Of a stretch of DNA of 64,000 nucleotides, positions 1 to 22,468 are shown piece after piece (position 1 is the first letter of the stretch; each line of letters starts with the position of its first letter). The stretch lies in the NCBI RefSeq assembly GCF_003002095.1, contig NZ_PVZC01000007.1:62001-126000 (forward strand), in the 5' to 3' direction. Origin of the DNA: Allonocardiopsis opalescens. Lineage in GTDB: Bacteria; Actinomycetota; Actinomycetes; Streptosporangiales; Streptosporangiaceae. Below the pieces are notes generated by a model. It had not been told where the DNA came from. It was given only the letters and a program-made list of their open reading frames with translations, and did not search any database. A program made the position numbers and the translations under genes.

Positions 1-3000
1 CGGGCGCCACCGCGGCCGGGTTGAGCTGGAACATCACCTGGAACAGCGGGTGGCGGGCGGTGGAGCGGGCCGGGTTGAGCCGCTCAACCAGGTACTCGAA
101 GGGCACGTCCTGGTGGTCGAAGGCGGCCAGGTCGGCGCGCACGACCCGGGCGAGCACCTCGGTGAAGTCGGGGTCGCCGGACAGGTCGGTGCGCAGCACG
201 AGGGTGTTGACGAAGAAGCCGACCAGCGGTTCGAGCGCTTCGTCGCCGCGTCCCGCGGTCGGCGAGCCGATGGCGATATCGGTGCCCGCGCCCATCTTGG
301 CCAGCAGTACGGCGAAGGCGGCCTGCAGGGTCATGAAGGAGGTGGCCCCGTGCGCGCGCGCCAGCTTCACCAGGCCGGTGTGCAGCTCGGCGGGCACGGT
401 GAAGTCCACGGTGTCGCCGCTGTGCCCGGCCACCGCCGGACGGGGCCGGTCGACCGGGAGCGCGATCTGCTCGGGCAGGCCGGCCAGGGCCCGGGTCCAG
501 AAGTCGGTCTGCCGCTCCAGCACCGGGCTGGGCCCGCTGCCGTCGCCCAGCCACTCGTGCTGCCAGAGCGTGTAGTCGGCGTACTGCACCGCCAGCGGCT
601 CCCAGTCGGGGGCCTGCCCGCGCAGCCGGGCGGCGCAGGCCAGCGAGAGGTCCTGGATCAGCGGCCCCATCGACCAGCCGTCCCCGGCGATGTGGTGCAC
701 GACCAGCACGAGGACGTGCTCGTCAGGGCGGAGCGTGAGCAGCGCGGCGCGCAGCGGTAGGTCGGCGGCGAGGTCGAAGTCGACCGCGGCGGCCGCGTCG
801 ACCAGGCCGGGCAGTTCGTCTTCGGCGCAGTGCCGCACCTCAAGGGCGGGCCTGGCCTCGTCGGCGGGCAGCACCCGCTGGAAGGGGCGGCCGTCGCGCA
901 CCGGGAAGACCGTGCGCAGCGACTCGTGCCTGGCCGCCACGTCGGCCAGGCCGGCGCGCAGCGCGGCGGCGTCGACCCGGCCGTGCAGGCGGACCGCGAC
1001 CGGGATGTTGTAGGTGGCGCTGGGACCTTCGATCTGCTTGAGGAACCACAGCCTGCGCTGCGCGAAGGAGAGCGGGACCTCCTCGGGCCGCTCGCGGGGG
1101 GCCAGCGGGGGCCGGCCGCCGGTGCGTGTCCGCGCCGCGCCGACCAGCTCCGCCATGGCGGCCACGGTGGGCCGCTGGAAGACCTCGACCACGTCGAGTT
1201 CGGCTCCGAGCACGGCGCGGACCCGGCTGATGAGGCGGACCACGAGCAGCGAGTGCCCGCCCAGCGCGAAGAAGTCGTCGTCGGGCCGCACGTCCGTGCG
1301 GCCGAGCACCTCGCCGAACAGCTCGCACAGCGCCGCCTCCACGGCTCCGGCCGGCGCGCGCCGTTCGGGGCGTCCGGCCCCGGCGAGGTAGCCGGGCTCG
1401 GGGGCGGCGGTGTGGCGGGCCGGGAGTTCCGTCTCGTCGGGCAGCAGCACCTGGACGCGCGACAGCGGGACGGCCGGATCGCCGAGCGCCTGGTCGAGCA
1501 CGCCGAGCAGCCGCTGAGCCATCCGCTCGACGCTCTCCCGCTCGAACAGGTCGGTGGCGAACTCCAGCGAGGCCGCGATGCCGGCGGGCTCGCCCTTCTC
1601 CGACCGGTACTCCTGCAGCAGCAGCGACAGGTCGAACTTGGCGACCGGCAGGTCCACCGGCTCCGGCCGCACCTCGATGCCGCCGAGGCTGAACTCCGGC
1701 ACCGCCGCCTCGGTGTGAAAGGCGAGCATGACCTGGAACAGCGGGTGCCGGTCGACCGAACGCACCGGGCGCAGCGCCTCCACCAGATGCTCGAACGGCA
1801 CATCGGCGTGCGCGTAGGCGAGCAGGTCGGTCTCCATCACCCGGGCCACGACGTCCTCGAACGACGGGTCCCCTGACAGGTCCGTGCGCAGCACCAGCGT
1901 GTTGACGAAGAAGCCGACCAGGCTCCACAGTTCCTCGTCCGTGCGCCCGGCGATCGGCGTGCCCAGCACGATGTCGTCACCGGCGCCCAATCGGTGCAGC
2001 ACGACCGCGAAGAGCGCGTGCATCGCCATGAAGGGGGTGACGTCGCGCTCGCGGCAGAACTCCGCCAGCCGCCGGTGAGTGGCTTCGGGAATGGAGAAGT
2101 GGACGGTGTCCCCACCGCCGCCGACCACCGCGGGCCTGGGGTGGTCGGTGGGCAGACCCAGATGCGTCGGCATATCCGCCAGGGCGTCGGTCCAGTAGTC
2201 CAGCTGATCGGCGATCCCGCCGTCGCCCAGCCGCTCGTGCTGCCACAGGGCGTAGTCGGCGTACTGCACCAGCAGCGGCTCCCAACCCGGGGCCTCCCCG
2301 CGGGTGCGCGCCTGGTACGCGGCCATCAGGTCACGCGTCAGCGGCCCCATCGACCAGCCGTCCCCGGCGATATGGTGCAGGACGAGCACCAGCACGCACT
2401 CCTGCGGCGCCACCGGGAAGAGCCAGGCGCGGAACGGAGGCCGTGCGCCGAGGTCGAAGTGCCAGGCCGCCGCCTCGCGCACCCGCTCGGCCAGCAGCTC
2501 CGGTGCACATGGCCGCACCTCCAGCCAGCGGCCGCACTCCGCCACCCCGAGGATCCGCTGGTAGGGCTCCCCCTCCGGCGCCTCGAACACGGTGCGCAGC
2601 GGCTCATGCCGCTCGGCGACGTCCTGGAACGCCTGCTCCAGCGCGGCTGCGTCGACCGAACCGCTCAACCGCAGCACCACCGGGATGTTGTAAGTGGCGC
2701 TGGGACCCTCGAGCTGGGCGAGGAACCACAGCCGCTGCTGCGCGAAGGAGAGCGGGATCCGCTCCGGCCGGTCAGCGGCGGTCAGACGCGACGAGGCGCC
2801 GCCGGTGGGCGCCTTCGCCGCGTTGATCAGTTCGGCCATGGCCGCCGGGGTGGGACGCTGGAAGACCTGGACCACGTCGAGTTCGGCTGCCAGCACGGAA
2901 CGGACCCGGCTGATCAACCGGATCACCAGCAGGGAGTGCCCACCCAGCTCGAAGAAGTCGTCGTCGGGTCCGACGTCCGTGCGGCCGAGCACCTCGCCGA

Positions 3001-4507
3001 ACAGCTCGCACAGCGCCGCCTCCACCGCTCCGGCCGGCGCGCGCCGTTCGGGCCGCCCGCCCGGAGCCGGGTAGCCGGGCTGGGGTGCGGGCTTGTGGCG
3101 GGCCGGCAGTTCCTTCTCGTCGGGCAGCAGTACCTGGACGCGCGACAGCGGGAGCGCGGGATCGCCGACCATCTGGTCGAGCACGCCGAGCAGCCGGCGC
3201 GCCATCCGCTCGACGCCCTCCCGCTCGAACAGGTCGGTGGCGAACTCCAGCGAGGCCGCGATGCCGGCGGGCTCGCCGGCCGCCGAGCGGTGCTCCTGCA
3301 GCAGCAGCGACAGGTCGAACTTGGCGACCGGCAGGTCCACCGGCTCCGGCCGCACTTCGACGCCGCCGAGGCTGAACTCCGGCACCGCCGCTTCGGTGTG
3401 GAAGGCGAGCATGACCTGGAACAGCGGGTGCCGGTCGACGGAGCGGACCGGGCGCAGCGCCTCGACGAGGTGCTCGAACGGCACGTCGGCGTGCGCGTAG
3501 GCGAGCAGGTCGGTCTCCATCACCAGGGTCAGCAGCTCGTCGAAGGAGGGATCGCCGGACAGGTCGGTGCGCAGCACCAGGGTGTTGACGAAGAAGCCGA
3601 CGAGGTCCCACAGCTCCTCGTCCGTGCGTCCCGCGATCGGCGTGCCCAGCACGATGTCGTCGCCCGCGCCGAGCCGGTGCAGCAGCGCGGTGAACACCGC
3701 GTGCAGCGCCATGAACGGAGTGATATCGCGCTCGCGGCAGAACTCCGCCAGCCGCCGGTGAGTGGCTTCGGGAATGGAGAAGTGGACGGCGTCTCCGGCG
3801 CCGCTGACCACCGCGGGCCGGGGGCGGTCGGTGGGCAGGCCCAGATGCGTCGGCATATCGGCCAGCGCGTCGGTCCAGTAGTCCAGCTGCTCGGCGATCC
3901 CGCCGCCGTCCATGCTCTCGCGCTGCCAGAGCGCGTAGTCGGCATACTGCACCGGCAGCGGCTCCCAGCCGGGGGCGCGCCCCTCGGCGCGCGCCTGGTA
4001 GGCGGTCATCAGGTCGCGCGTCAGCGGCCCCATCGACCAGCCGTCCCCGGCGATGTGGTGCAGGACGAGCACCAGCACGCCCTGGTCCGGCGCCAGGGTG
4101 AACAGCCAGGCGCGGAAGGGCGGCCGCCTGTCGAGGTCGAAGGGCCGGCCCGACGCCTCGCGCACCCGCTCGGGCAGCGACTCAGGTGTACACGGCCGCA
4201 CCTCCAGCCAGCGGCCGCACTCCTCGATCCCCAGGATGCGCTGGTAGGGCTCCCCCTCCGGCGCCTCGAACACGGTGCGCAGCGGCTCGTGCCGCTCGGC
4301 GACGTCCTGGAACGCCTGCTCCAGCGCGTCGGAATCGACCGATCCGCTCAGGCGGAGCACCACCGGGATGTTGTAGGTGGCGCTGGGGCCTTCGAGCTGG
4401 GCGAGGAACCACAGCCGCTGCTGCGCGAAGGAGAGCGGGATCCGCTCCGGCCGGTCAGCGGCGGCCGGACGCGACGAGGCGCCGCCGCCCCAGCCGTTCA
4501 CCGTCAT
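1..4507 (-). CDS. NRPS 3: adenylation-less C-PCP-C-PCP-C... chain (3' end outside window)
   Basis: Starts at ATG 4507 (GGAAGAG upstream) and stays open to the left edge, about 1,500 codons. I read a C domain (residues ~20-450), PCP (~480-550), a second C (~580-1010), PCP (~1035-1110) and a third C that is cut off. All three C domains keep [13 protein letters not shown], and both PCPs keep the phosphopantetheine serine (LGGHSLL). Between each C and its PCP there is only a short linker, with no A-domain motif (no SGSTG, YGPTE or TGD). The PCPs must therefore be loaded by an adenylation enzyme in trans. A-less modules are known, for example one in ramoplanin synthetase, but several in a row are unusual. 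The gene is last in the cluster's minus-strand order, and its end (thioesterase or further modules) lies outside the window. Modules 1 and 2 are near-identical copies. Confidence 0.9.
1091..2770 (-). repeat. Tandem module duplication, copy B (~1,680 bp)
   Basis: This covers C-PCP module 2 of NRPS 3, close to copy A at DNA level. The third unit (below 1090) starts 1,680 bp further on (the equivalent site is at about 1031). Its C domain is clearly more diverged, while the linker and PCP before it still match copy A closely. This suggests duplication or gene conversion with mosaic boundaries. Confidence 0.75.
2771..4453 (-). repeat. Tandem module duplication, copy A (~1,683 bp)
   Basis: This covers C-PCP module 1 of NRPS 3. 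Matching points recur exactly 1,683 bp (561 codons) apart; for example, the string beginning gagctgggcgaggaacc is at 4394 and again at 2711. Long stretches around 3695-3800 match 2012-2117 almost base for base. The boundaries are approximate. Confidence 0.8.
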
Positions 4508-4760
4508 AGGAATCATCTCTTCCGGGTTGGCCACCAGGGATAAATCCGTGCGTACCGGATTGGCCGCCGGTATTCCGCGTCGCATTACGGTGGCGCTTTA
4601 CCTGCTCGGCCGCTGCGCCGCCCCGATCGGATACCGCCGCCCGAATTGCGTGCTGCGTGGAGGCTAACAGCAGCACCATTCGAAAACACCTGATCGGTTG
4701 CACACCGAGCCGCCGCGATAATCCTGCGATCGCCCCGGCCCGGTGACTACAATCGGCGGC

Positions 4761-5165: not shown

Positions 5166-7565
5166 TCAGCCGGCGTCCAGGCTCTCGGCGTAGACGTACG
5201 CGCCCGGCGCGGGCCGGCCGGGCAGCGTCTCGCTCAGGAAGCGCCGCAGCGCGGGAACCGGAGGGGGCGCGGCGAGCGCGGGCACCACATAGGCGACGAG
5301 TCCGCTTCCGCGCCGCTGTACCCGCGCGTCGCGCACGCCCGGATGGCGGCGCAGCGCCTCCTCGATCATCAGCGCGGCCGCCTGCGCGGCGCTGGGCGGC
5401 TCCGCGGGCAGCAGGTGGCCGGCCGGGTGGCGGCGCACCCGCAGCCCGGTCGCCAGGCAGGGGCCGGCCCCCTCGGGCAGGTCCACCCCGGCGGGGGCGG
5501 TGACCGCACTCCCCTCCCCCGCACCATCCAGGGACGGCCCCCAGATCAGCAGCTCACCCGGCACCCCGGGCGGCACCGGCCGACCGCGTGCGTCCACCAC
5601 GGCCAGCGCCGTCCCCGGCGCCGCGCCGCCCAGCGGACCATGCACACCGCCGTCGGACCGGTGGACGAGCAGGGTCCCCCAGCCCCCGGTGCGCTCGGGC
5701 CCCCAGACGCTCACCAGCTGCGGCCCCCGGTCCCCGTGACGGGCGAACCAGGCTCCGGTATCGGGCGGCACCGGCCCGTCACCGCGCAGGAGGACCAGGC
5801 GGGGACCGTTCCCGGACCGCGGACCGCGGTAGGCCGCCGTCAAGGCCGGCAGCGCCGAGGCCGGCAGGCACAGCACATCGGCGCCGGCGGCCAGCGCGCG
5901 GGCCAGACCCCCCGCGGAGGCGTCCTGCCGCATCGCCTCCCGTGCGCAGTGCCGCGCGGCCGCCTGCTCCCAGCCCCGGTCGTGCGCGAGGAGCCACACA
6001 TCGTCCGTGGTGCAGCCGAGGATGCCCGCCACCGCGCGCAGCCGGCCGTCCTGCCCGCCGTGCCGCGCGGCGCCGCGCCACTCGGCCGCCAGCCCGGCCG
6101 CCTCGGCGGGAGTGAGCAGCGGCAGGTCGTGCACGGCACGGTCCGGATCCTCGGCCATGGCGGCGAGCAGGACTCCCAGGTGCGCCGCCATCCGCTGGAC
6201 GGTCGACGGGTCGAACAGGTCGGTGCTGTACTCCAGGTGGCCGTCCAGTCCGGCCGGGGTGCGCAGGAAGGACAGCTCCAGGTCCACCTTGGCCGCCACC
6301 ACCGGCCGCGGCACGGGTTCGACGGTCAGCCCCGTGGGCGGAGGCGGCAGGGGAACCGGCTGGTTGTGCAGCGCGAACACGGTCTGGAAGAGCGGGTTGC
6401 GGTCCAGGGCGCGCTGGGGGCGCAGCTCGCGCACCAGCCACTCGAAGGGTACGTCGCCGTTGTCGAGCGCCGCCAGCACGGTGCCGCGCACCGTCCGCAG
6501 CAGCTCGCGCACGGTCGGATCCTCCGACAGCCTCCCTCTGACCAGCAGCGTGGTCGCGAAGCAGCCGACCGCTCCTTCGAGCCCGCTGCCGGCCCGGTTG
6601 GCGTACGGGGTGCCCACCAGCAGGTCCTCGCGGCCGCAGTAGCGCGACAGCAGCACGAAGTAGCCGGCGAGCAGCACCATGAACAGCGTCGCGCCCTCTT
6701 CGCGGCCGCGCCGCTCCAAGCGCTCCACCAACTCCTCCGGGAGGGTGAACAGGTACTCGGCGCCGGCGTGGCTCTCCCTGGCCGGCCTGGGCCGGTCGGT
6801 GGGAAGCTCCAGCTGTTCCGGCGCCCCGGCCAGGCTGTTCCGCCAGTGCGCGAGCCGCGCCGCGACCTCGGGCGATTCCAGCCGCTCGCGCTGCCAGACC
6901 GCGTAATCGGCGTACTGGACGCCAGGCGGCGGCAGCGCCGCGGGCCGCCCTTCGCACGCCGCCGCGTACAGCGCGATCAGCTCCCCCGCCAGTACGCGGA
7001 TCGACCAGCCGTCGCTCACGATGTGGTGGACGGCGAGCACCAGCAGGTGGTGCCGCTCGGCCAGCCGGATCAGCGCGACCCGCAGGAGCGGCGGCGCGCC
7101 GAGGTCGAACGGGGCCGCGCCCAGCGCGGCGGCCCGCTCGGCCGCGGCCGCCTCGCGCCGCCGCACCGGCAGGCCGTCCACCGAGTCGACGGTGAGTGTC
7201 AGGGCCGCGTCGGGCACCACCACCTGCATCGGCACGTCGTCGCGCTCCACGATCGCCGTCCGCAGTGCCTCGTGCCTGTGTACCAGCTCGGCCAGGGCCG
7301 CGCGCAGCACCGCGGTGTCCAGTGGGCCGCGGAGCGTGAAGGCGCTCAGCTCGTTGTAGGCCGCCGACTCCGGGTAGATCCGCTCCACCAGCCACAGCCG
7401 CTCCTGCGCCGGCGACAGGGGCGCGGGCTCGGCAGGACGCGGCCGCCGGACCGGAGCGCCCGCCGCGCGCTCGGCGGCCAGTTCGCGCCGCAGCAGCAGC
7501 TCGGCCAGCCGCCGCCTGCGGTCCGCAGACCCGGGGCGGCCGCTCAGTCCAGGTCCTTCGCCCAC
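5166..7565 (-). CDS. Condensation domain fused to a degenerate adenylation remnant (no PCP)
   Basis: A 799-aa protein from GTG 7565, with GGGGAGG 8 nt upstream; it overlaps the end of the ammonia-lyase gene by 22 nt. Residues 1-45 form a charged, Arg/Leu-rich helix that could be a docking element. Residues ~45-475 are a C domain with an intact HHIVSDGWS. Residues ~490-799 look like a decayed A domain. GPER stands where YGPTE is expected, PGELLIWGPSL resembles the A5-A6 region, and GLRVRRHPAGHLL resembles the A7-A8 region. The nucleotide-binding SGSTG-PKG loop, the TGD motif and the catalytic A10 lysine are absent. There is no PCP. The A part is almost certainly inactive for adenylation; it could be structural or a leftover from a fusion. 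Confidence 0.8.
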   Translation of the reverse strand: MGEGPGLSGRPGSADRRRRLAELLLRRELAAERAAGAPVRRPRPAEPAPLSPAQERLWLVERIYPESAAYNELSAFTLRGPLDTAVLRAALAELVHRHEALRTAIVERDDVPMQVVVPDAALTLTVDSVDGLPVRRREAAAAERAAALGAAPFDLGAPPLLRVALIRLAERHHLLVLAVHHIVSDGWSIRVLAGELIALYAAACEGRPAALPPPGVQYADYAVWQRERLESPEVAARLAHWRNSLAGAPEQLELPTDRPRPARESHAGAEYLFTLPEELVERLERRGREEGATLFMVLLAGYFVLLSRYCGREDLLVGTPYANRAGSGLEGAVGCFATTLLVRGRLSEDPTVRELLRTVRGTVLAALDNGDVPFEWLVRELRPQRALDRNPLFQTVFALHNQPVPLPPPPTGLTVEPVPRPVVAAKVDLELSFLRTPAGLDGHLEYSTDLFDPSTVQRMAAHLGVLLAAMAEDPDRAVHDLPLLTPAEAAGLAAEWRGAARHGGQDGRLRAVAGILGCTTDDVWLLAHDRGWEQAAARHCAREAMRQDASAGGLARALAAGADVLCLPASALPALTAAYRGPRSGNGPRLVLLRGDGPVPPDTGAWFARHGDRGPQLVSVWGPERTGGWGTLLVHRSDGGVHGPLGGAAPGTALAVVDARGRPVPPGVPGELLIWGPSLDGAGEGSAVTAPAGVDLPEGAGPCLATGLRVRRHPAGHLLPAEPPSAAQAAALMIEEALRRHPGVRDARVQRRGSGLVAYVVPALAAPPPVPALRRFLSETLPGRPAPGAYVYAESLDAG

Positions 7566-9073
7566 GTCCGCAGCCTCCCCCGCAGGTAGCGGCGCGACTT
7601 CTCGATGTCATCGGCCTGCAGCCGGTCCTCGCGCAGGAATCCGACCTCCTGGCGGAACTCCGCCACCACGCCGCGGGTCGCGGGCGACGGCCGCAGCCCC
7701 TGGTTGAGATCGATGGCCTGAACGGCGGTCATCAGTTCCACCGCGAGCACGTACTCGCAGTTGTCCAGGATGGTCCACAGTTTGTAGGCGCTGGTGCCGC
7801 CCATGCTGACGTGGTCTTCCTGCAGCTGCGAGGTGGGGATGGTGTCGATGCTCGCCGGAGTGGCCAGCACCTTGTTCTCGTTGACCAGCGCCGCCGAGGT
7901 GTACTGCGGGATCATCAACCCCGAGTCCACCCCCGGTTCGGGGGCCAGGAAGTCCGGCAGCCCGTGCTGGCCGGAGAGCAGCTGGTAGGTGCGCCGCTCG
8001 GAGATGTTGGCCAGCTCGCTCATCGCGATGGCCAGGAAGTCCAGCGCGAAGGCGGTGGACTCCCCGTGCAGGTTCCCGCCCAGGATCACCTGGTCGTGCT
8101 CGGGGAAGAACAGCGGGTTGTCCGAGACGCTGTTGCACTCCCTGCCGACGATATCGCGTGCGAATCCACAGGTCTGGCGGACGGCGGCGTGCACCTGGGG
8201 TGCGCAGCGGAAGGAGTAGGGGTCCTCGCGCGCCGCATTGCCCTGCGGGAGGGTGTGGTGGTTGCTCCCGTCGAGCAGCCGCACCAGGTTGCCGGCCACC
8301 GCCGAACGCTCCGGATGCAGCGAGGTGGCGTGCAGGATGGGCTGGTAGAAGGTGTCGGCGCAGCTGAAGCCCTGGATGCTCAGGCCGGCGATCAGGTCCG
8401 CCGCCTTGATCAGCCGCTCGCTCCGCAGTACCGAGTCCAGAGCGAGCGCGTTGATGTACTGCACCCCGTTGGTCAGCGCCAGCCCCTCCTTGGGCTTGAG
8501 CCGCAGGGGCTTCCACCCCATCGCCTCCAGGACGGCGCCCGCGTCGGTGATCCGGCCGTCCACCCGCACCTTGCCGAGGCCGATGAGCGGCAGCGCCAGG
8601 TGCGCGAGCGGCGCCAGGTCGCCGCTGGCGCCCACCGTGCCCTTCTTGGGCACCACCGGGATCACGTCGGCGTTCCACAGGTCGAGCACCCGCTGCACCG
8701 CCTCCAGCGAGATGCCGGAGTAGCCGGCCCGGAAGGTGAGCAGTTTGACCAGCATCGCCAGCCGGGACACCCGCTCGGGCACCGGCTCGCCGACCCCGCA
8801 GGCGTGTGAGACCAGGTGCTTGTGCTGCAGCTCGGACATGCGGTCGGCGGGGATGCGCGTCTCGCACAGCGGGCCGAAGCCGGTGTTGATGCCGTAGATG
8901 TGGCGGTCCTGGGGTGCGATGCGCTCGACGTAGCGGGCGCCGGCGTCGATGCGCTCGGCCACTTCGGGCGCGAGGGCGAGCCGCGGCGGCTCATCGACCA
9001 GCGCCATCAGCGCGTCGAGCGAGTAGAAGTCGGTGGAGATCTCCACCGTGGGACGGTCGGCGGCTGCGCTCAC
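7544..9073 (-). CDS. Histidine-ammonia-lyase-like MIO enzyme
   Basis: A 509-aa protein, the normal length for bacterial HAL. It starts at GTG 9073, overlapping the NRPS 2 stop (GTGA). The MIO-forming Ala-Ser-Gly is at residues 149-151 (GTVGASGDLAPL). The catalytic loop Tyr is at residue 60 (IYGINTGFG). The substrate-selectivity pair in LVSHACGVG is Ser-His (89-90), as in HAL rather than the His-Leu of tyrosine ammonia-lyases. NNxxPQ-type and QEDHVSMGG motifs are present. The family eliminates ammonia from aromatic amino acids or, in aminomutases, moves it to the beta carbon. Translational coupling to NRPS genes on both sides suggests it makes a building block (urocanate-like acid or a beta-amino acid) rather than acting in histidine degradation. 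Lyase versus mutase cannot be settled by eye. Confidence 0.85.
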   Translation of the reverse strand: MSAAADRPTVEISTDFYSLDALMALVDEPPRLALAPEVAERIDAGARYVERIAPQDRHIYGINTGFGPLCETRIPADRMSELQHKHLVSHACGVGEPVPERVSRLAMLVKLLTFRAGYSGISLEAVQRVLDLWNADVIPVVPKKGTVGASGDLAPLAHLALPLIGLGKVRVDGRITDAGAVLEAMGWKPLRLKPKEGLALTNGVQYINALALDSVLRSERLIKAADLIAGLSIQGFSCADTFYQPILHATSLHPERSAVAGNLVRLLDGSNHHTLPQGNAAREDPYSFRCAPQVHAAVRQTCGFARDIVGRECNSVSDNPLFFPEHDQVILGGNLHGESTAFALDFLAIAMSELANISERRTYQLLSGQHGLPDFLAPEPGVDSGLMIPQYTSAALVNENKVLATPASIDTIPTSQLQEDHVSMGGTSAYKLWTILDNCEYVLAVELMTAVQAIDLNQGLRPSPATRGVVAEFRQEVGFLREDRLQADDIEKSRRYLRGRLRTWAKDLD

Positions 9074-12000
9074 ATCGCTCTCGATTCGTCGGCGTCAGGA
9101 GGTGCTTCGTACTCGGCCAGCAGGGCTTCCACCTCGTCATCGGTGAGCCCGGCCAGCCGCTCCTCGATTCCGGCCAGTCGGCCGTCCAGACCCGCCTCGG
9201 CCAGTCGGCGCTCGACCTCCGCTGCGGTCCCCGCGACGGTGGGCCGGGCGAACAGGTCCTGGAGCGGTACGTCCGCTCCGTGGCGCTCCCTGATCCGGTT
9301 CACCAGCCGAGCGGCCTGCAGTGAGTTGCCGCCGAGCTGGAAGAAGTCGTCGTCGCGCCCGACCTCGGCTGCGCCCAGGACCTCGCCGACCAGTTCGGCG
9401 AGGTCACGCTCCAGGCCCGTACGCGGCGGGGCGGAGCCGCGCGCGGACGTCCGCTCGCCGGCCGGCGGCAGCGCGCGGCGGTCGAGCTTGCCGTTGGGCG
9501 TGCGGGGCAGCGCCGCCGGCCGGACCACCACGCCGGGCACCATGGTCCGCGGCAGCCGCTCGGCGAGGAAGTCGCGCAGCGCGGCGGTGTCGTGCGCCGG
9601 ATCGGCCACGACGTAGAGGACGAGGTGCTGCCCCTGCCCCGCCTCCTGCACCGCGGCGGCGCACTCGCGCACCCCGGGGAAGCGGGCGGCGGCCCGCTCG
9701 ACCTCCTCCAGCTCGACGCGGACCCCCATCAGCTTCACCTGGTTGTCCGTCCGGCCGACGAACTCCAGCTCGCCGTCGTGGCGCAGCCGGGCCAGGTCGC
9801 CGGTCCGGTACGCCCGGCCGCGCGGGCGGGCGCGCACCGAGGCGGCGAAGCGCGCGGCGGTGTCGTCGGGGTCGCCCAGGTAGCCGGCGGACAGGTACGG
9901 CCCCGCGATCCACAGCTCCCCGGTGACGCCGGCCGGGCACAGCCGCCCCTGGTCGTCCAGGACCAGCACGGCCCGGCCGTCGATGGGGCGGCCGATCGGA
10001 ACGGCCGCGCCATCGGGCGGCACCGCGTCCACGGTGAAGGAGGTGGCGGCCACCGCCTCGGTCGGCCCGTAGATGTTGACCATGCGCACCCCGGCTCCCA
10101 GCACAGCGCGCGCCGCCGCCACCACGTCGGCGGGCAGCGGCTCTCCCACGAAGGCGACGGTCCGCAGGGCGGTGCCACCGCCGTCCGACCGCAGCCGTCG
10201 CAGGACCTCGCGGAACAGCCGCGGGATGACCTGGAGCACGGTGACGCGCCGCTCGCGCAGCCAGCGGGCCAGCGCACCGGGGTCGGCGCGCCCTCCGGCC
10301 GGGCGCATGCATAGCGCGGCACCGCTGCACAGCGCGCCGAAGATCTCGCAGTAGGCGACGTCGAAGGAGAGCGCGGCGAGCTGGCCGACCCGCTGCCCCG
10401 GGCCGATGCCGAGGGCGTCCGCCTGCCAGCGGACGAACTCCGCCAGATCGGCGTGGGTGTGCGGGATGCCCTTGGGCCGGCCGGTGGAGCCTGAGGTGTA
10501 GGCGATGTAGGCGAGGTCGCGCGGAACGGGCGCGGCGACGGGCCGCGGCGCCGCGGCACCGCGCGGTGGCACTCCCGGTACGCTCGACGGCTCCGCGCCG
10601 CCGCCGGCGTCGACCACCGCGACCGGCGCCGCCCCGGCCAGCGCGCCGGCGTGCCGCCCGGCCGCGGCGGCGTCGGCGACGACCAGGGCGGGCCGCAGTT
10701 CATCGATGAGCCCCCGCACGCGTGCACCGGGGTTGACCGGGTCGACGCAGGCGAAGGCGGCGCCGGCCTTCACCACACCCAGCAGCGCGACGATCGCGGC
10801 CGCGCCGGCGTCCATCAGCACGGCGACCGGGCGTCCCGGCACCGCGCCCAGTTCGGTGAGGCGGCCGGCCAGGCGCGCGGCCCGCGCCGCCACTTCGCGG
10901 TAGCTCAGCACCGTCGCGCCGTCGATCACGGCGTCGGCTTCCGGCGCCTCGGCCGCCCGGCGCTCGAACTGGTCGAGCAGAGTGGTGTCGGGTCCCGCGG
11001 CACCGGTCGCGTCGGCGGCGGCCAGAATGCGCAGCCGCCGCTCGTCGGGCAGCGACTCGGCCTCGCCCACCGGCCGGTGCGGATCCGCGGCGAAGCACTC
11101 CAGAAGGTGGGCCAGCACGGCGGCCAGTTCCTCGGCCGCGGCGGCCAGGTAGCGGTCGGTGCGGTACCGCAGGGCCGCGCCGCCGTCGCCGACCGCGAGC
11201 ACGAGCGCGGTTCCCAGCGCGTCGGCGTCGGGCTCCCAGTCCTGCGCCGAGCCGTCGCCCGGACCCAGCACCAGCACCTGGCGCAGCGCCTCGCAGGGTC
11301 CGTCCAGACCGGCGGCGATGGTGTCGAAGGGCAGTTCGGCGGCGCTGTCGCGGGTCCGCTCAGCGTGCACGCGGGCGATCAGCTCGGCGGCGCTCTCGTC
11401 CTCGCGCACCGCGATCCGCACCGGTACCACGTCGGCCAGCGCCCCGACCACCGCCCGCTGACCACCGCCGGTGCGGCCTGCCGCCGGGGTCGCCATGACG
11501 ACGTCGCGTCCCGCGCCGAACCTGCTCAGCGCGACCGCCGCTCCGGCGAGCAGCGCGTCATCAGCAGCCCCGGCCGGGCCGGCCGGAGCGGGAACGGGCG
11601 CCGCGACCGCGGCGGTGACCCAGCGGCCCGGGCCGGGGCCGTCCTGGGCTCCGGCCAGCGGCAGCCGCGCGGGCATCCCGGCGAGGCGCTCGCGCCAGTA
11701 GGCGGCCCTCGCGCGGCCATCAGCGCCACCGACGGCGCGGCGCAGCCAGACCGCGTGGTCGGCGGCTTGCAGGGGCGGATCCGCGCCGTCGCCGGGGGAG
11801 CCGCCGGCCGCCGCGGCGTGGTAGCCGCGCACCAGTGCGTCCATGACCCTGCGCAGCGACCATGCGTCCAGGGCGAGCGGGTCGGCTGCCGCGATCAGCA
11901 GCGACGCACCGGGCGACCGGGCCAGTCCCACCGCCAGCGGTTCGTCCGGCCCCGCGCCTGCGGCGAGGGCGGCGGCGAGGCCGCCGGCCCCGGTGCCGGC

Positions 12001-13611
12001 CGCGAGCGGGTCCAGCCGCCGCAGCCGGGCTCGGCCCGGAGGGCCGACGACCTGGCGCAGCGGTCCGCCGTCGTCCACGAGCACGGTGCGCAGCGCTTCG
12101 TACCGCTCCTCGACCCAGCCCAGGGCCGCGCCCACCGCCTCGGCGGAGGCGTCCGCCGGCAGCGGAGCGGTCGCGATCCTGCGCTCGGGCGCGGCGCCGG
12201 CGGCGCGCGCCGCGTGCAGCCGGCGCTGCGGCGGGGTGGGCGGCACCGGCTGGGCCCGGTCGACCCGGCGCGGCACCGGCACCCCCGCCGCGGCCAGTCT
12301 GCTGATCGGCAGCTCGGGGTCCCTGGCCAGCCGCCGCAGCAGCCCGGACAGGTCGGCGGCCAGCTCCGCGACCGTGTCGGCGCGCAGCAGGTCGGCGTCA
12401 TAGCGCAGGACGGCGTCCAGGCCCGCCGCCCCGGGGGAGACGAAGAGAGCGAGGTCGTCTTGCGCCGTACCCGTCTCGACGGGGAAGGGGAGCAGGGCCG
12501 TCCCCGCGCCGAGGTCCAGTGGGACCGCCGGGAAGTTTTGGAAGGCGACCGCGGTGCGGAACAGCGGAGCCGCCGGCCCGCCGGGGCGGGCCGGCCGCCC
12601 GGCCAGTGCCTGGAGCGGCACCTCCTGGTGGTCGAGGACGTCGGTGACGGTGCGCGCGGTGCGCACCAGCAGCTCGCGGAAGCTGGGGTCGCCGGTGAGG
12701 TCGGCGCGGACCGGCAGCACGTTGACGAACGGGCCGATCAGCGCGTGCAGCCGCTCGTCGGGCCGGTTGGCGGTGGGGGTGCCGACGTGGAAGCGGCGCC
12801 GGCCGGTGTGCCGGTACAGCAGCACCTGGAAGGCGGCGAGCACCGCCATGTAGAGGGTGGCCGACTCCTCGGCGGCCAGTGCGGACAGCCGGCGGGCCGC
12901 CGGCCCGTCCACGGTGACGGCGCGATGGCCGCCGAGGAACCGCGGCACCGGGGCGCGCGGGTGGTCGAGCGGCGGCTCCAGCGGCTCCACCTCCTCGGCC
13001 AGCGCCCGCTCCCAGAACGCGTACTGCCCGGCCGGCTCGCGCGCCTCGGCCCTGGCCCGCTGCCAGCGCGCGTAGTCGGCGTACTGCAGCGCCGGCGGCG
13101 GCGCGGCGGGGCCCTGTCCGGTGGCGGCGCGGTACAGGGCGGCGAACTCCGTGAAGAAGACACCGAGTGACCATCCGTCGAAGACGGCGTGGTGGGCGAC
13201 CAGGACCAGCCGCTCCTGCTCGCCGGGCGCCCGGATGAGGGCCGCCCGGAACAGCGGGCCGCGCGAGAGTTCGAAGGGCTCGGTGGCGAAGCTCCTCACG
13301 AGCGCATCGGCCTGCCCGGCGGAGCCGGCCTCCCGCACGGCCAGCGGAGTGTCGGGCACGGTGCTGGTCACCTGGAGGAGCCGATCGCCGTCGAGGACCA
13401 GGCGCGTGCGCAGCACGGAGTGCCTGCGCACGATCTCGCGCAGCGCTTCGCGGACGGCGGCGGCGTCCAATGCGCCATCGACACGGGCGCCGAAGGCCAG
13501 ATTGTGCACGGCCGTTCCGGGCCTGAGCCGCTCGGCGAACCAGAACCGCTCCTGCGTCGACGACGCGGGAGCGCTGGAATCCCCAGGGCCGCGTTCCAGG
13601 GGTATCCGCAT
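9070..13611 (-). CDS. NRPS 2: C - degenerate C - A - PCP
   Basis: A 1,513-aa protein. I start it at ATG 13611, which has GGGGGAGAGG 9 nt upstream, not at the upstream in-frame codon 13683. The first C domain (~18-435) has HHAVFDGWS at residues 140-148. A second C-like region (~455-865) keeps the fold signature, but the active site reads AADPLALDAWS, so both catalytic histidines are gone. Then comes an A domain (~890-1370) with [27 protein letters not shown] and NGKLDR. A PCP (~1400-1470) has LGGNSLQA. The pocket residues I read are D-V-C-Q-A-V-I-A-A-K, which match no code I know. The C-terminal tail (LDGRLAGIEERLAGLTDDEV) is an acidic helix typical of docking tails. The divergent gene at 13798 is an MbtH-like protein. 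Confidence 0.9.
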   Translation of the reverse strand: MRIPLERGPGDSSAPASSTQERFWFAERLRPGTAVHNLAFGARVDGALDAAAVREALREIVRRHSVLRTRLVLDGDRLLQVTSTVPDTPLAVREAGSAGQADALVRSFATEPFELSRGPLFRAALIRAPGEQERLVLVAHHAVFDGWSLGVFFTEFAALYRAATGQGPAAPPPALQYADYARWQRARAEAREPAGQYAFWERALAEEVEPLEPPLDHPRAPVPRFLGGHRAVTVDGPAARRLSALAAEESATLYMAVLAAFQVLLYRHTGRRRFHVGTPTANRPDERLHALIGPFVNVLPVRADLTGDPSFRELLVRTARTVTDVLDHQEVPLQALAGRPARPGGPAAPLFRTAVAFQNFPAVPLDLGAGTALLPFPVETGTAQDDLALFVSPGAAGLDAVLRYDADLLRADTVAELAADLSGLLRRLARDPELPISRLAAAGVPVPRRVDRAQPVPPTPPQRRLHAARAAGAAPERRIATAPLPADASAEAVGAALGWVEERYEALRTVLVDDGGPLRQVVGPPGRARLRRLDPLAAGTGAGGLAAALAAGAGPDEPLAVGLARSPGASLLIAAADPLALDAWSLRRVMDALVRGYHAAAAGGSPGDGADPPLQAADHAVWLRRAVGGADGRARAAYWRERLAGMPARLPLAGAQDGPGPGRWVTAAVAAPVPAPAGPAGAADDALLAGAAVALSRFGAGRDVVMATPAAGRTGGGQRAVVGALADVVPVRIAVREDESAAELIARVHAERTRDSAAELPFDTIAAGLDGPCEALRQVLVLGPGDGSAQDWEPDADALGTALVLAVGDGGAALRYRTDRYLAAAAEELAAVLAHLLECFAADPHRPVGEAESLPDERRLRILAAADATGAAGPDTTLLDQFERRAAEAPEADAVIDGATVLSYREVAARAARLAGRLTELGAVPGRPVAVLMDAGAAAIVALLGVVKAGAAFACVDPVNPGARVRGLIDELRPALVVADAAAAGRHAGALAGAAPVAVVDAGGGAEPSSVPGVPPRGAAAPRPVAAPVPRDLAYIAYTSGSTGRPKGIPHTHADLAEFVRWQADALGIGPGQRVGQLAALSFDVAYCEIFGALCSGAALCMRPAGGRADPGALARWLRERRVTVLQVIPRLFREVLRRLRSDGGGTALRTVAFVGEPLPADVVAAARAVLGAGVRMVNIYGPTEAVAATSFTVDAVPPDGAAVPIGRPIDGRAVLVLDDQGRLCPAGVTGELWIAGPYLSAGYLGDPDDTAARFAASVRARPRGRAYRTGDLARLRHDGELEFVGRTDNQVKLMGVRVELEEVERAAARFPGVRECAAAVQEAGQGQHLVLYVVADPAHDTAALRDFLAERLPRTMVPGVVVRPAALPRTPNGKLDRRALPPAGERTSARGSAPPRTGLERDLAELVGEVLGAAEVGRDDDFFQLGGNSLQAARLVNRIRERHGADVPLQDLFARPTVAGTAAEVERRLAEAGLDGRLAGIEERLAGLTDDEVEALLAEYEAPPDADESRAM

Positions 13612-13797
13612 GAGAGAATTCCTCTCCCCCGGGCATTGAATTCGTTTCGCTTTTCCACCGCGGATTCTAGGAGACGCAGTCATACAGGCGTCAAGGAAGG
13701 GACTTGGACATCGCGTCCATCCGAATTTCCCTCTTCCGCTCGGCCGCGTCCGGCCAGACTATGGGTTTCCGCTATTCCAGTGAGAGGGGAAACCCGA
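13612..13797. promoter_or_regulatory. Divergent promoter region between NRPS 2 and the MbtH-like gene
   Basis: A 186-bp gap between two divergent starts, less GC-rich than its surroundings. Both genes have good ribosome binding sites at its edges: GAGAGGGGA for the plus gene and GGGGGAGAGG for the minus gene. I see no convincing StrR-type inverted repeat here. Confidence 0.5.
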
Positions 13798-14349
13798 ATG
13801 GCGAATACCGAGGACGGCCTCCAGCGGGTCGTCGTCAACCACGAGGAGCAGTACTCGATCTGGCCCGCCGACCGGGAGCCGCCCGAAGGGTGGACCGCCG
13901 AGGGCTTCCAGGGCGACCGCGAGTCCTGCGTCGCCTACATCGACCAGGTGTGGACCGACATGCGCCCGCTGAGCCTGAGGCGCGCCATGGAGGAGGCGGC
14001 CCGAGGCGGCGGACCGGACGTCGAGCCGCCGGCCGCGCCGGCCGGTCCGCCGCTTCCCGACCGGCTGGCGGGCGCCGAGCACCGGGTCGACGTCGTCCTG
14101 CGCCCGGAGCCGTCGGCCGAGCGGCTGCGCGCCGCCGTCGAACGCGGCTACCTTCACCTGCGCTTCCCCGACACCGACGGCGGCACCGAGGTGGGGGTCG
14201 CACTGCACCCGCGTGATGCCGCCCTCGCCGAGGAGTCCGGTCGGATCACGCTGAGCGGCGAGTTCACCCTCGATTTCACGCCGCTGCACTGCACGGCGCT
14301 GATCGACACCGCCGCCTACAGCGGCAGCGCCCGCGTCGAGCGCCGCTGA
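13798..14349 (+). CDS. MbtH-like protein with a C-terminal extension domain
   Basis: A 183-aa protein from ATG 13798 (GAGAGGGGA upstream). Residues ~8-62 are a textbook MbtH fold: VVVNHEEQYSIWP, then PEGW, GDRESCVAYI and WTDMRPLSLRRAM, with all three family tryptophans. MbtH proteins bind NRPS A domains and are often needed for their solubility and activity. Most are only about 70 aa. Here a Pro-rich linker (~70-85) leads to about 95 further residues of mixed alpha/beta appearance (LHLRFPDTDGGTEVGVALHP..., then SGEFTLDFTPLHC) that I do not recognise. The gene lies between two NRPS genes on the opposite strand, and its 3' end overlaps the end of NRPS 1 by 34 nt. It probably assists the A domains of NRPS 1 and 2; the tail's role is unknown. 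Confidence 0.85.
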   Translation: MANTEDGLQRVVVNHEEQYSIWPADREPPEGWTAEGFQGDRESCVAYIDQVWTDMRPLSLRRAMEEAARGGGPDVEPPAAPAGPPLPDRLAGAEHRVDVVLRPEPSAERLRAAVERGYLHLRFPDTDGGTEVGVALHPRDAALAEESGRITLSGEFTLDFTPLHCTALIDTAAYSGSARVERR

Positions 14350-17300
14350 GCGCCCGCCGCCTGCTCGACCCGCCGGGCGACCGCGGCCAGCCGGTCGTCC
14401 TCGAAGACCAGCCGGAGCGGCAGCTCCACAGCGAAGCGACCGTTGATCCGGCTGGTCATCCGGGTCGCCAAGAGCGAATCACCACCCAGATCGAAGAAGC
14501 CGTCGTGCCGCCCGACCACCGCGACGCCGAGCATCTCGCGCCACAGCGCCGCCAGTTCCGTCTCCATCCCGGGCTCGGGCGGCTCGGCCGCCGCAGCCGG
14601 GCGCTCGGCCACCGCCGCCGCGCGCACCAGCGCCGACCGGTCGACCTTGCCCGTACGGGTCCTGGGCAGCTCGTCGACGGCCGAGAAGAGCGCCGGGACC
14701 ATGTAGTCGGGGAGCCGCCGGCGCACCGCGGCCCGCACGTCGCGGATCTCGGTCCCTGAACCGCCGAGACGCACCCAGGCGGCCAGCCGCGTTCCCGAAG
14801 GTCCCTCGGCCGGCACCACCGCCGCCTCCACCACTCCGCCGACCGCGGCGACGGCCGCCTCCACCTCGCCGACCTCCACCCGGTGGCCGCGGATCTTGAC
14901 CTGCGTGTCGATCCGTCCGATCAGCTCCAGGCCGCGCCGGGTCCACCGGGCGCGATCGCCGCTGCGGTAGCAGCGGGCCCCCGGCCCGCCGGCCGGATCC
15001 GGCAGGAAGGCGGCGGCGGTCAGGCCCGGCCGGCCCAGGTAGCCGCGCGCCACCCCGACCCCCTGGCACAAGATCTCGCCGGGCACGCCCACCGGAACCG
15101 CGGTCAACCCGGCGTTCACCACCGTCTGCCGGGAGCCGGGCAGCGGGAACCCGACGGGTACCGGCTCGGCACCGGCCGGCACCTCGGCGGAGGTGGAGCA
15201 GAAGCTGTCCTCGGTCGGCCCGTAGAGGTTCAGCACCCGCGCCGCGCCGGCCTCGCGCAGCCGGCGCACCAGCGGCTCGGGCAGCGCCTCACCGCCCGAC
15301 GCCACGACCCGTCCGCAGGCCCACCCCGCGATGCCGCCGTCCCCGGGCGGTGCCGTCTCGGCGAGTGCGGCGAGTGCGGAGGGGACGCCGGTCACGCACA
15401 TCACGCGCTCGCGTTCGGCCAGTTCAGGCAGGTCGAGCACGCTGTCGGCCAGCACGGCGGTACCGCCGGCGGCCAGCGGGCCGAAAAGCTCGAAGACCGA
15501 GAAGTCGAAAGCGATCGAGGTGCCCGCCAGCACCCCCGACAGCTCCGTCGGACTGAAGGCCCGCGCCGCCCAGCCGATGCGAGCCAGCACGCCGCTGTGG
15601 GTCACCACGACGCCCTTGGGCCGGCCGGTCGAGCCGGAGGTGTACAGGACGTACGCCGCCTGCTCGGGATGGGCGAGCGCGGCCGGCGGCGCCGGCGGCG
15701 CCGCCAGGGCCGTCTCGACGGTGAGCACCGGGACGTCCCAGGTATCGAGCCACCCGGCCGTCTCGGTATCGGCGAGGACGATGCGCACGCCCGCGTCGGC
15801 CAGCATCTCGGCGCGGCGCTGCGCCGGGTCGGCGAGCCGGACCGGCAGATAGGCGGCACCGGCCGCCAGCACGCCGAGCACGGCGACGGGCAGCAGCGAG
15901 GTGCGCTCGTGGCAGACCGCGACGCGGTCCTCGGCGCCGATCCCCCACGCGCGCAGGGCCGAGGCGACCCGGCGCACCGCGTCCGCCAGACCCGCGTAGC
16001 TCAGGGCGCCGTCGGGCGCGGCCACCGCGACCCGGTCCGGAGTCCTGGCCGCCTGGGCCAGCACGGCGCCGTGCACGCCGTCCGCGCCCGCCGCCGGCGC
16101 CGGGCCTCCGTCGCCCCAGGCGGCCAGCAGCCGCCGCTCGCCCTCGGCCACGAGGTCGATCCCGGCCGCCGCGGCGTCGGGATCGGCGACAAGTGCGGCG
16201 GCCAGCCGCAGGAAGCGGTCGGCGAGAGCGGCCGCGGACTCGGCCGCGAACAGCTCGGCGTCGTACTCGAAGGCGACGTCCAGTCCGCCGCCGGGCTCGG
16301 GGCGGACCATCACGGTGAGGTCGAACTTGGCGGCGCCCGTCTCCAGCGGCTCCAAGCGGGTGCGCAGCCCGCTCAGCTCCGGCTCCGGCGCCTGGCGCTC
16401 GACGGCGAGCATGACCTGGAACAGCGGCGTGCCCGCCTGGGTGCCGGAGCCCGCCGTCTCCTTGACGACCTGCGCGAAGGGCGTGTCCTGGTGGGCCAGC
16501 GCCTCGGCCGCCTCAGTGCCGCAGCGCCGCAGCAGCTCGCGGAAGCCGGGCCGCCCGGTGAGGTCGGCGCGCAGCACCACCGTGTTGGCCAGGCAGCCGA
16601 AGAGCCGCTGCGACTCGGGCGAGGTCCGGCAGGCGACGGGTGTGCCGATCCCGAACTCCTCCTGGCCGCTCTCGGCGCCCAGCAGGGCGGCGAGCAGGGC
16701 GGCCAGCGCGGCGAATCGGGTGGTCCCCTCGGCTCGCGCCAGCTCGTCCAGCGCGCCGACCGTACCGGCGTCCACGGTTCGGCGCACGGTCGCGGCCGGG
16801 CGGCGCCCCGCACCCCGGCGCGGCGCGTCGGCCGGCAGGCGCAGAGCCGGCAGCCCCGCGAGCCGCTCGCTCCACCATGCCAGGCCCTGCTCCCCCGCGG
16901 ACGGCGGCGCGGCGGCCCAGCTCGGATAGTGGCCGGCCGGGGCGGTCGGCGGGCCGTCGGCGCGGTAGGCGGCGGCGAGGTCCTCGGCGAGCAGTTCGAG
17001 CGACCAGCCGTCGCAGCCGGCGTGGTGGGCGACGAAGACGAGCCGGTGGTCGTCGGGCCCCAGCCGCAGCAGCCTAGCCCGCCACAGCGGTCCGGCGGCC
17101 AGGTCGAAGCGGCGGCGGGCCTCCTCGCGAGCGATGCGGTCCGCCTCGGCCGCGTCCCGCACCTCGGTGACGGGGAGCCGTGGCGGCCGCGGCTCGGCCA
17201 GGCGCTGGCGCGGGACGCCGTCGACCAGCGGGAAGTGCAGCCGCATCCCGTCGTGGCGCGCCACCGCCGCGCGCAGCGCCCGCTCCAGCCGGCCGGGGTC

Positions 17301-22439: not shown

Positions 22440-22468
22440 GGTCGCTCCGTTTTGCTCGTCTTCACACT

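What the first reader, a model, noticed from the sequence alone, without database searches (positions are those of the whole stretch)
1..4507. NRPS built of consecutive C-PCP modules without any adenylation domain
Seen directly: three C domains and two PCPs in a row, all with intact active-site motifs and no A-domain motif between them. Single A-less modules served in trans are established (one in ramoplanin synthetase). A run of at least two identical A-less modules implies one trans A enzyme charging several carriers with the same residue, i.e. a homo-oligomeric stretch.
Basis: partly seen in the sequence, partly recalled or inferred. Interest (0 to 1): 0.8.

Follow-up and report, generated by a model that had tools for sequence, protein, structure and literature searches.

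The report
Peptide synthetase missing most loading domains
A bacterial antibiotic-type assembly enzyme has four building stations but only one of them carries the part that selects and loads its amino acid, and the gene next door encodes a separate loading enzyme that may feed the other stations, perhaps with diaminopropionate.

Summary
The whole gene (C7:57352-66585, 3077 aa, open frame) is C-T-C-T-C-A-T-C-T-TE: three of four modules lack an A domain, and the only A, in module 3, lies about 300 bp outside the window. Modules 1 and 2 are close copies; all four C domains form one clade. The stand-alone A-T at C7:26801 has a degenerate A. A better feeder is the next gene, C7:54065, an A-T-TE. 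Its A code recurs in 77 of 78 relatives. Among the best 80 relative loci (79 with gene calls), 63 have a Pls/PosA-like protein directly upstream, 62 of them without an A domain, and 63 of 80 have SbnA, SbnB and TauD genes. Here its TE nucleophile and the oxygenase's distal iron His are lost. Best reading (0.5): it loads diaminopropionate, or a relative of it, in trans onto modules 1, 2 and perhaps 4. Main rival (0.33): the module-3 A serves all four carriers, as in fungal SidC. Consecutive A-less modules have precedents: a new variant of a known kind.

The parts
2..4585 (-). In-window part of the NRPS gene g57352 (whole gene C7:57352-66585, 3077 aa, C-T-C-T-C-A-T-C-T-TE). Parts left of the window, in contig coordinates (window = C7:62001-126000), all on the minus strand: C7:54065-57268, A-T-TE protein, 83 nt behind g57352, A code DIWQSTADDK, proposed trans feeder; C7:47315-48298, TauD-family oxygenase, distal iron His replaced by Asn; C7:49365-54068, SbnA-like/ATP-grasp fusion, GHMP kinase and argininosuccinate-lyase-like gene, proposed to make the diamino acid; C7:26801-28510, stand-alone A-T with degenerate A, poor trans-A candidate
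   Evidence: gene; feeder; oxygenase; precursor genes; degenerate A-T:
3140..4441 (-). C1 condensation domain (aa 49-482), HHIAGDG
2816..3028 (-). T1 carrier domain (aa 520-590), LGGHSL
1457..2758 (-). C2 condensation domain (aa 610-1043), HHIAGDG; 87% identical to C1
1133..1345 (-). T2 carrier domain (aa 1081-1151), LGGHSL; 85% identical to T1
1..1078 (-). C3 condensation domain (aa 1170-1609), cut by the window edge; left of the window follow A3 (code DVWQVSLIEK), T3, C4, T4 and TE
5166..7565 (-). C domain with an A remnant (C-terminal part only, no A3 motif) and no carrier

Best explanation
g57352 is a four-module synthetase in which modules 1, 2 and 4 have no A domain. The A domain of the neighbouring A-T-TE protein (C7:54065-57268) activates a short diamino acid, most likely L-2,3-diaminopropionate (Dap) or a derivative. 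It charges the carriers of A-less modules in trans, T1 and T2 first of all and probably T4. The module-3 A adds a different residue (its code looks Ser-like), giving a stretch such as Dap-Dap-X-Dap that the C-terminal TE releases. Shown here: the architecture, intact C and T motifs, intact A core motifs in both A domains, gene order, the conserved code, and loss of the TE nucleophile and of an oxygenase iron ligand. Inferred: Dap as substrate, trans loading, which carriers are served, and the product.
For: (1) The A code DIWQSTADDK is identical in 77 of 78 relatives aligned (the other differs at one place) and in G101. (2) Of the 80 relative loci kept by a capped scan (best 80 of 526 confirmed), 63 also hold SbnA, SbnB and TauD matches and 10 hold SbnA, ATP-grasp, lyase, kinase and TauD matches, the set seen here. 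The SbnA and SbnB of one locus (L101) score above the NCBIfam cut-offs for diaminopropionate synthesis. (3) In 63 loci, of 79 with gene calls, a Pls/PosA-like polymerase lies directly upstream on the same strand; in 62 of these 63 it has no A domain (family name tested on L101 only). So this A family usually sits behind an A-less carrier protein, and here g57352 occupies that place, 83 nt upstream. (4) TE nucleophile: Ser in 67, Cys in 11, Gly only here, of 79. The distal iron His of the TauD partner is kept in 79 of 80 relatives; ours has Asn and the one exception, G101, has Tyr. G101's A-T has no TE and its cluster has a C-T-C protein with an A remnant between C and T, as judged by eye. The old release and hydroxylation route looks lost while A and T motifs stay. 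(5) The precursor genes are better kept than the oxygenase: 4 of 57, 6 of 86 and 2 of 65 near-invariant columns changed, against 29 of 96. (6) Precedent: CmnA-A1 loads L-Dap in trans onto A-less CmnI (PMC12400406, part 1 of 3 of the text read).
Against: T1, T2 and T4 are closer to T3, the carrier of the module-3 A (58-60%), than to the carrier of the A-T-TE protein (44-47%). The A-T-TE protein is the most diverged member of its family in the A domain as well (31 of 206 near-invariant columns changed; T 6 of 25, TE 11 of 56), so it may itself be decaying. The link to Dap is by gene neighbourhood. Our SbnA-like part scores 249.8 bits, below the curated cut-off of 349.95, and SbnB was not seen among the cluster genes scanned, so the substrate could be something else. 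In Streptosporangium carneum (L111) a homologous A-T-TE sits behind a C-A-T-C-A-T-TE protein without A-less modules. G346 has the same precursor genes and a C-T-C-A-T-TE protein with one A-less module but no A with this code in the 80 kb read. Our A-T groups with that of G101 only weakly (0.36).
Confidence: 0.5

Rival explanations
1. In-protein sharing: the single A of module 3 loads its own carrier and also T1, T2 and T4, so the protein adds four copies of one residue (a Ser-like or Dap-like amino acid by its code). No trans enzyme is needed.
For: C1-C4 form one clade (100/99), and T1-T4 resemble each other more (56-85%) than any other carrier in the 180 kb read (at most 53%), as expected of modules amplified around one A. 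In SidC, A3 is reported to serve T4 and T5 of two consecutive A-less modules (PMC10192304, passages). G009 and G012 have C-A-T-C-T-C-A-T-C-T-C-T-TE beside an A-T-C protein, with no stand-alone A-T in the 61.6 and 100 kb read.
Against: Shared ancestry of the modules would look the same under trans loading. In SidC the A-less modules lie downstream of the A; here two lie upstream. It leaves unexplained why an intact A-T of a family that usually neighbours A-less carriers sits next door. The code differs from the closest Ser-like one (G012, DVWHVSLVDK) at 3 of 10 places, so the substrate is unsure.
Confidence: 0.33
2. The A-less carriers receive another residue by a shuttle: for example the amino acid made on the LysW-type amino-group carrier, passed from the carrier of the degenerate A-T protein (C7:26801) or by the BtrH-like protein.
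For: The cluster has LysW, LysX, kinase, semialdehyde dehydrogenase, M20 peptidase, split transketolase and aminotransferase genes next to the degenerate A-T, and a BtrH_N protein. That A-T keeps an intact carrier.
Against: Nothing ties these genes to modules 1 and 2 beyond being in the same cluster; the nearby type II TE has an ordinary GHSMG motif. A C-A-T protein (C7:39005) with intact motifs could take the LysW-made amino acid instead.
Confidence: 0.1
3. The cluster is decaying and the A-less modules are non-functional relics.
For: Two degenerate A domains, one C without HHxxxDG, a TE without its nucleophile and an oxygenase without its distal His in the same cluster.
Against: The C1-C4 and T1-T4 motifs are intact apart from one Gly in C4, the 3077-aa frame is open, three precursor genes are well conserved, and modules 1 and 2 seem to have been duplicated after the A loss, since they share the same C-T linker.
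Confidence: 0.07

Closest known systems
Capreomycin CmnA-A1 / CmnI (and viomycin VioA / VioI)
   Same: An A domain elsewhere loads an A-less carrier in trans; the residue is L-Dap in capreomycin (PMC12400406).
   Different: One A-less module there, three here; the donor A there belongs to another chain module, here proposed to be an A-T-TE protein; no loading shown here.
SidC / SidD (fungal siderophore synthetases)
   Same: SidC: consecutive A-less modules in one protein, reported to be served by its A3; SidD A1 loads two carriers (PMC10192304, passages).
   Different: Fungal; A-less modules downstream of the A; hydroxamate residues. Here two lie upstream and one downstream.
Unnamed relatives G009 and G012 (ornithine monooxygenase, siderophore-like)
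   Same: C-A-T-C-T-C-A-T-C-T-C-T-TE: three A-less modules of five, two of them consecutive; C domains in the same larger clade.
   Different: Two A domains; no stand-alone A-T found nearby; different cluster.
Syringomycin SyrB1/SyrB2/SyrC
   Same: Separate A-T, TauD-like enzyme and TE-like domain beside an A-less C-T-TE module (PMC8949500 section 4.1).
   Different: TE nucleophile and oxygenase distal His are lost here.
Poly(Dap) synthetase and Pls/PosA homopolymer synthetases
   Same: The feeder A-T-TE family sits beside A-less Pls/PosA-like proteins and SbnA/SbnB genes in most loci examined; PDAP synthetase activates L-Dap (PMC4668381, passages).
   Different: Here the acceptor protein has true C domains and a fixed number of modules; PDAP synthetase is a single A-T chain with a membrane polymerase part.
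WS9326A Cal19 with Cal22/Cal23; ramoplanin and enduracidin stand-alone A-T
   Same: A module without an A (WS9326A) or with an inactive one as the review puts it (ramoplanin, enduracidin) is complemented by separate A-T proteins; the ramoplanin-type feeder also has an N-terminal extension.
   Different: Single modules; our feeder's extension is like the C-terminal half of a C domain (hhalign 99.4%), the ramoplanin one was not compared.

Membership tests
NRPS with A-less modules (A supplied from elsewhere) | C joined to T without an A domain, in one open frame | tested here: met
   modules 1, 2 and 4
NRPS with A-less modules (A supplied from elsewhere) | Condensation and carrier motifs intact | tested here: met
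   (C4 reads HHIAGDV: His and Asp kept, Gly changed)
NRPS with A-less modules (A supplied from elsewhere) | An A enzyme charges the orphan carriers | not testable with these tools
   needs a loading assay
CmnA/CmnI-type trans loading of Dap | An intact A domain for Dap outside the A-less module | tested here: inconclusive
   A motifs intact; code identical in 77 of 78 relatives; SbnA and SbnB matches in 63 of 80 relative loci; our own SbnA-like part is below the curated cut-off; substrate not assayed
SyrB1/SyrB2/SyrC aminoacyl shuttle | Iron enzyme with intact ligands acting on the A-T | tested here: not met
   distal His replaced by Asn; 79 of 80 relatives keep His
SyrB1/SyrB2/SyrC aminoacyl shuttle | Shuttle TE with Cys or Ser nucleophile | tested here: not met
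   Gly here; Ser 67, Cys 11 of the other 78. A separate type II TE gene with GHSMG exists at C7:25986-26804
SidC-type in-protein sharing | An intact A in the same protein as consecutive A-less modules | tested here: met
   A3 at aa 1629-2140
SidC-type in-protein sharing | That A loads the other carriers | not testable with these tools
   no assay possible
Pls/PosA homopolymer synthetase | No ordinary C domain; membrane polymerase region | tested here: not met
   g57352 has four C domains and Pfam lists only Condensation, AMP-binding, PP-binding, Thioesterase and AMP-binding_C; TIGR02353 itself was not run on it

The most novel reading that the evidence does not exclude
A feeder enzyme that in many Streptomyces stands beside an A-less homopolymer (poly-Dap-like) synthetase has been rewired here to a modular synthetase. 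Its modules shed their A domains, so an open-ended homopolymer system has become a counted one: the number of A-less C-T modules sets the length of a Dap run, which grows simply by module duplication (modules 1 and 2).
Probability: 0.3. Interest if true: 0.7.

Novelty: new variant of a known kind. Interest (0 to 1): 0.5.

Why it matters
If right, one stand-alone loading enzyme serves several carriers of a modular synthetase, upstream and downstream of a normal module. This breaks the usual one-module-one-A prediction used in genome mining and gives a simple way for a synthetase to lengthen a run of one residue. The cluster also shows a graded series of A-domain loss: intact, degenerate, truncated, cleanly removed. 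It gives a concrete in vitro test with four carriers and two candidate A domains.

Tried and rejected
Assembly collapse and pseudogene: rejected on open frame, repeat length and synthetases elsewhere with the same kind of junction. The stand-alone A-T at C7:26801 as trans A: considered first, rejected because its A lacks the A3 signature, Asp235 and the A10 Lys. The C-A remnant at window 5166-7565 as trans A: rejected (no A3 motif). SyrC-type shuttle: not met. The loss of TE and oxygenase function in ours and in G101 need not be two events: the two oxygenases are sisters (0.99). The oxygenase's proximal motif (QHEE here against HxE) could be a one-residue shift, so only the distal His loss is claimed. 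The plasmid search returned matches below 60% identity made of separate pieces in the rows listed (15 of 81), which I took for ordinary C domains and did not follow. Searching the papers for the A codes as text found none (0 papers). Among listed solved structures none is named as a Dap-specific A domain. Organism name: not obtained.

Limits: one search kept the best 80 of 526 confirmed relatives, so counts on these loci describe the closest relatives only. One search scored only three candidates per genome in the rows shown, so no match in 197 other genomes is weak evidence. In one search (seven candidates scored per genome), 5 of 99 other same-family genomes had a single match across C-T-C; two of these (G009, G012) have two consecutive A-less modules, the other three (G031, G074, G097; G097 in two proteins) single ones with a stand-alone A-T, TauD-like and TE genes nearby (Pfam run for G031 only). 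A-less C domains of G101 and G346 fall in the other half of the C tree, so there is no single A-less lineage. Of the five other genomes with an SbnA-fusion match, A-less C-T occurs in G101 and G346, not in the stretches of G338 and G025, and G013 was too short to tell. Pfam reports five Condensation stretches in g57352 where my profile finds four C domains; I take one to be split, unchecked. Dropped rows: locus L144 gave no gene calls; L114's longer protein was outside the length filter.
Full report
CHECK OF THE OBSERVATION. The window is contig 7, 62001-126000, of a 6.97 Mb genome. The ORF at 2..4585(-) runs off the left edge. With the neighbouring stretches fetched, the gene is C7:57352-66585, 3077 aa. 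Pfam finds five Condensation stretches, four carriers, one A domain and one thioesterase; with profiles built from its own domains it is C-T-C-T-C-A-T-C-T-TE, four C domains. C1, C2 and C3 carry HHIAGDG, C4 HHIAGDV, and all four carriers LGGHSL. The C-to-T gap is 37 residues in modules 1 and 2, 43 in module 4 and 537 in module 3.

NOT AN ARTEFACT, AS FAR AS SEQUENCE SHOWS. The frame is open over 3081 codons. Modules 1 and 2 are 89% identical in DNA and the longest exact repeat in the gene is 73 nt. The linkers that stand in place of the A domain are alike in modules 1 and 2, so the A was probably lost before they were duplicated. The tree of 47 C domains puts C1-C4 in one clade (100/99), within a larger clade that also holds C domains of A-less modules of G009, G012, G031, G074 and G097, but not those of G101 and G346. 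The nearest solved structures to C1 are 5u89 and carrier-C didomains such as 7kvw.

NEIGHBOURHOOD. Around the gene lies a cluster with: a protein whose first A looks like an acyl ligase by eye, followed by carrier and two modules (window 14316-22640); a C-C-A-T protein whose second C lacks HHxxxDG (9070-13683); a HutH-like lyase (7544-9073); a C with an A remnant (5166-7565); the A-T-TE protein C7:54065; a lyase, a GHMP kinase and an SbnA/ATP-grasp fusion; a GntG-type aldolase; a TauD-like oxygenase; a BtrH_N protein; a C-A-T protein; P450 and acyl-CoA dehydrogenase genes; and a LysW-type set ending in a degenerate A-T.

WHO CAN CHARGE THE ORPHAN CARRIERS. A domains with intact motifs: module 3 (DVWQVSLIEK), C7:54065 (DIWQSTADDK), C7:39005, window 9070 and the three of window 14316. 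The stand-alone A-T C7:26801 and the remnant at window 5166 are degenerate. A scan of named genomes with the C7:54065 protein confirmed 526 relatives and kept the best 80 loci. The code is the same in 77 of 78 aligned. Of the 80 loci, 63 also have SbnA, SbnB and TauD matches, and 10 have SbnA, ATP-grasp, lyase, kinase and TauD matches, the set seen here. In 63 loci a Pls/PosA-like protein lies directly upstream on the same strand, and 62 of these 63 lack an A domain (the name from NCBIfam on one member). This family therefore usually stands next to an A-less carrier protein. In our genome the A-less synthetase stands at the same place.

WHAT HAS CHANGED HERE. Its TE has Gly where the others have Ser (67) or Cys (11), and the oxygenase's distal His is Asn, with 79 of 80 relatives keeping His. 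The one other exception, G101, also has an A-T without TE and a C-T-C protein with an A remnant in the same cluster; its oxygenase is sister to ours (0.99). None of the 79 relative loci with gene calls shows C directly followed by T within the flank of up to 10 kb; the flanks read around our gene and G101 were longer. The old fate of the charged residue seems gone while A and T keep their motifs. I infer that the residue now goes to the orphan carriers. Whole-domain divergence does not single out the TE (A 31 of 206, T 6 of 25, TE 11 of 56, N-terminal part 3 of 21 near-invariant columns changed), which weakens the argument. Our SbnA-like part is below the curated SbnA cut-off (249.8 against 349.95), so Dap itself is not certain.

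THE RIVAL. T1, T2 and T4 resemble T3 (58-60%) more than the A-T-TE carrier (44-47%), and SidC is reported to use one A for consecutive A-less modules in the same protein (PMC10192304, passages). G009 and G012 look like that case, with ornithine monooxygenase genes. G346 has the same precursor genes and an A-less module but no A with the DIWQSTADDK code in the 80 kb read. I cannot exclude the rival; I give it 0.33.

COMPARISON WITH THE LITERATURE. Trans loading of Dap: PMC12400406 (part 1 of 3). Syringomycin, albicidin, ramoplanin, enduracidin: PMC8949500 (section 4.1). WS9326A: PMC7539972 (passages). A C-PCP-C protein proposed to be served by one stand-alone A acting iteratively: PMC11446937 (passages). 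PDAP synthetase: PMC4668381 (passages). Consecutive A-less modules are thus known. What I did not find in the searches is a bacterial protein with A-less modules on both sides of its only A and a Dap-type feeder next door; most subscription papers are not in that library.

VERDICT. A real and unusual architecture, a new variant of a known kind, with a testable feeder. Interest 0.5.

Noticed in passing
C7:26801-36804 (left of the window): LysW-type amino-group carrier set (LysW, LysX, kinase, semialdehyde dehydrogenase, M20 peptidase) with split transketolase and aminotransferase, plus a sulfotransferase at C7:46647; resembles the route to the azabicyclic amino acid of azinomycin and vazabitide A described in PMC9570651 (passages).
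   Followed up: partly
loci L073-L152: A-T-TE protein with a constant A code next to an A-less Pls/PosA-like protein, SbnA, SbnB and a TauD oxygenase in about 60 of 80 loci, mostly Streptomyces: looks like a hydroxylated poly-diaminopropionate pathway, unknown to me.
   Followed up: partly
window 7544-9073: Histidine ammonia-lyase-like gene (above the HutH cut-off) among the NRPS genes; may supply urocanate or a beta-amino acid.
   Followed up: no
window 9070-13683: C-C-A-T protein whose second C has no HHxxxDG and is the longest end branch of the C tree; possibly an interface-like domain.
   Followed up: no
window 5166-7565: C domain followed by only the C-terminal part of an A domain and no carrier, reminiscent of the truncated A described for SidD.
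   Followed up: no
G101:C27 (L169, L170): Related cluster with A-T lacking TE, oxygenase with Tyr at the distal His place, and a C-T-C protein with an A remnant: a possible intermediate of A-domain loss.
   Followed up: partly
G346:C9 (L171-L174): Cluster sharing the lyase, kinase, SbnA-fusion and aldolase genes, with a C-T-C-A-T-TE protein (one A-less module) and several separate A proteins.
   Followed up: partly
G009:C34 (L059-L062), G012:C2 (L063-L067): Siderophore-like synthetases C-A-T-C-T-C-A-T-C-T-C-T-TE with ornithine monooxygenase genes and two consecutive A-less modules.
   Followed up: partly
C7:134885-163811 (right of the window): A second NRPS cluster on the + strand on the same contig.
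   Followed up: no
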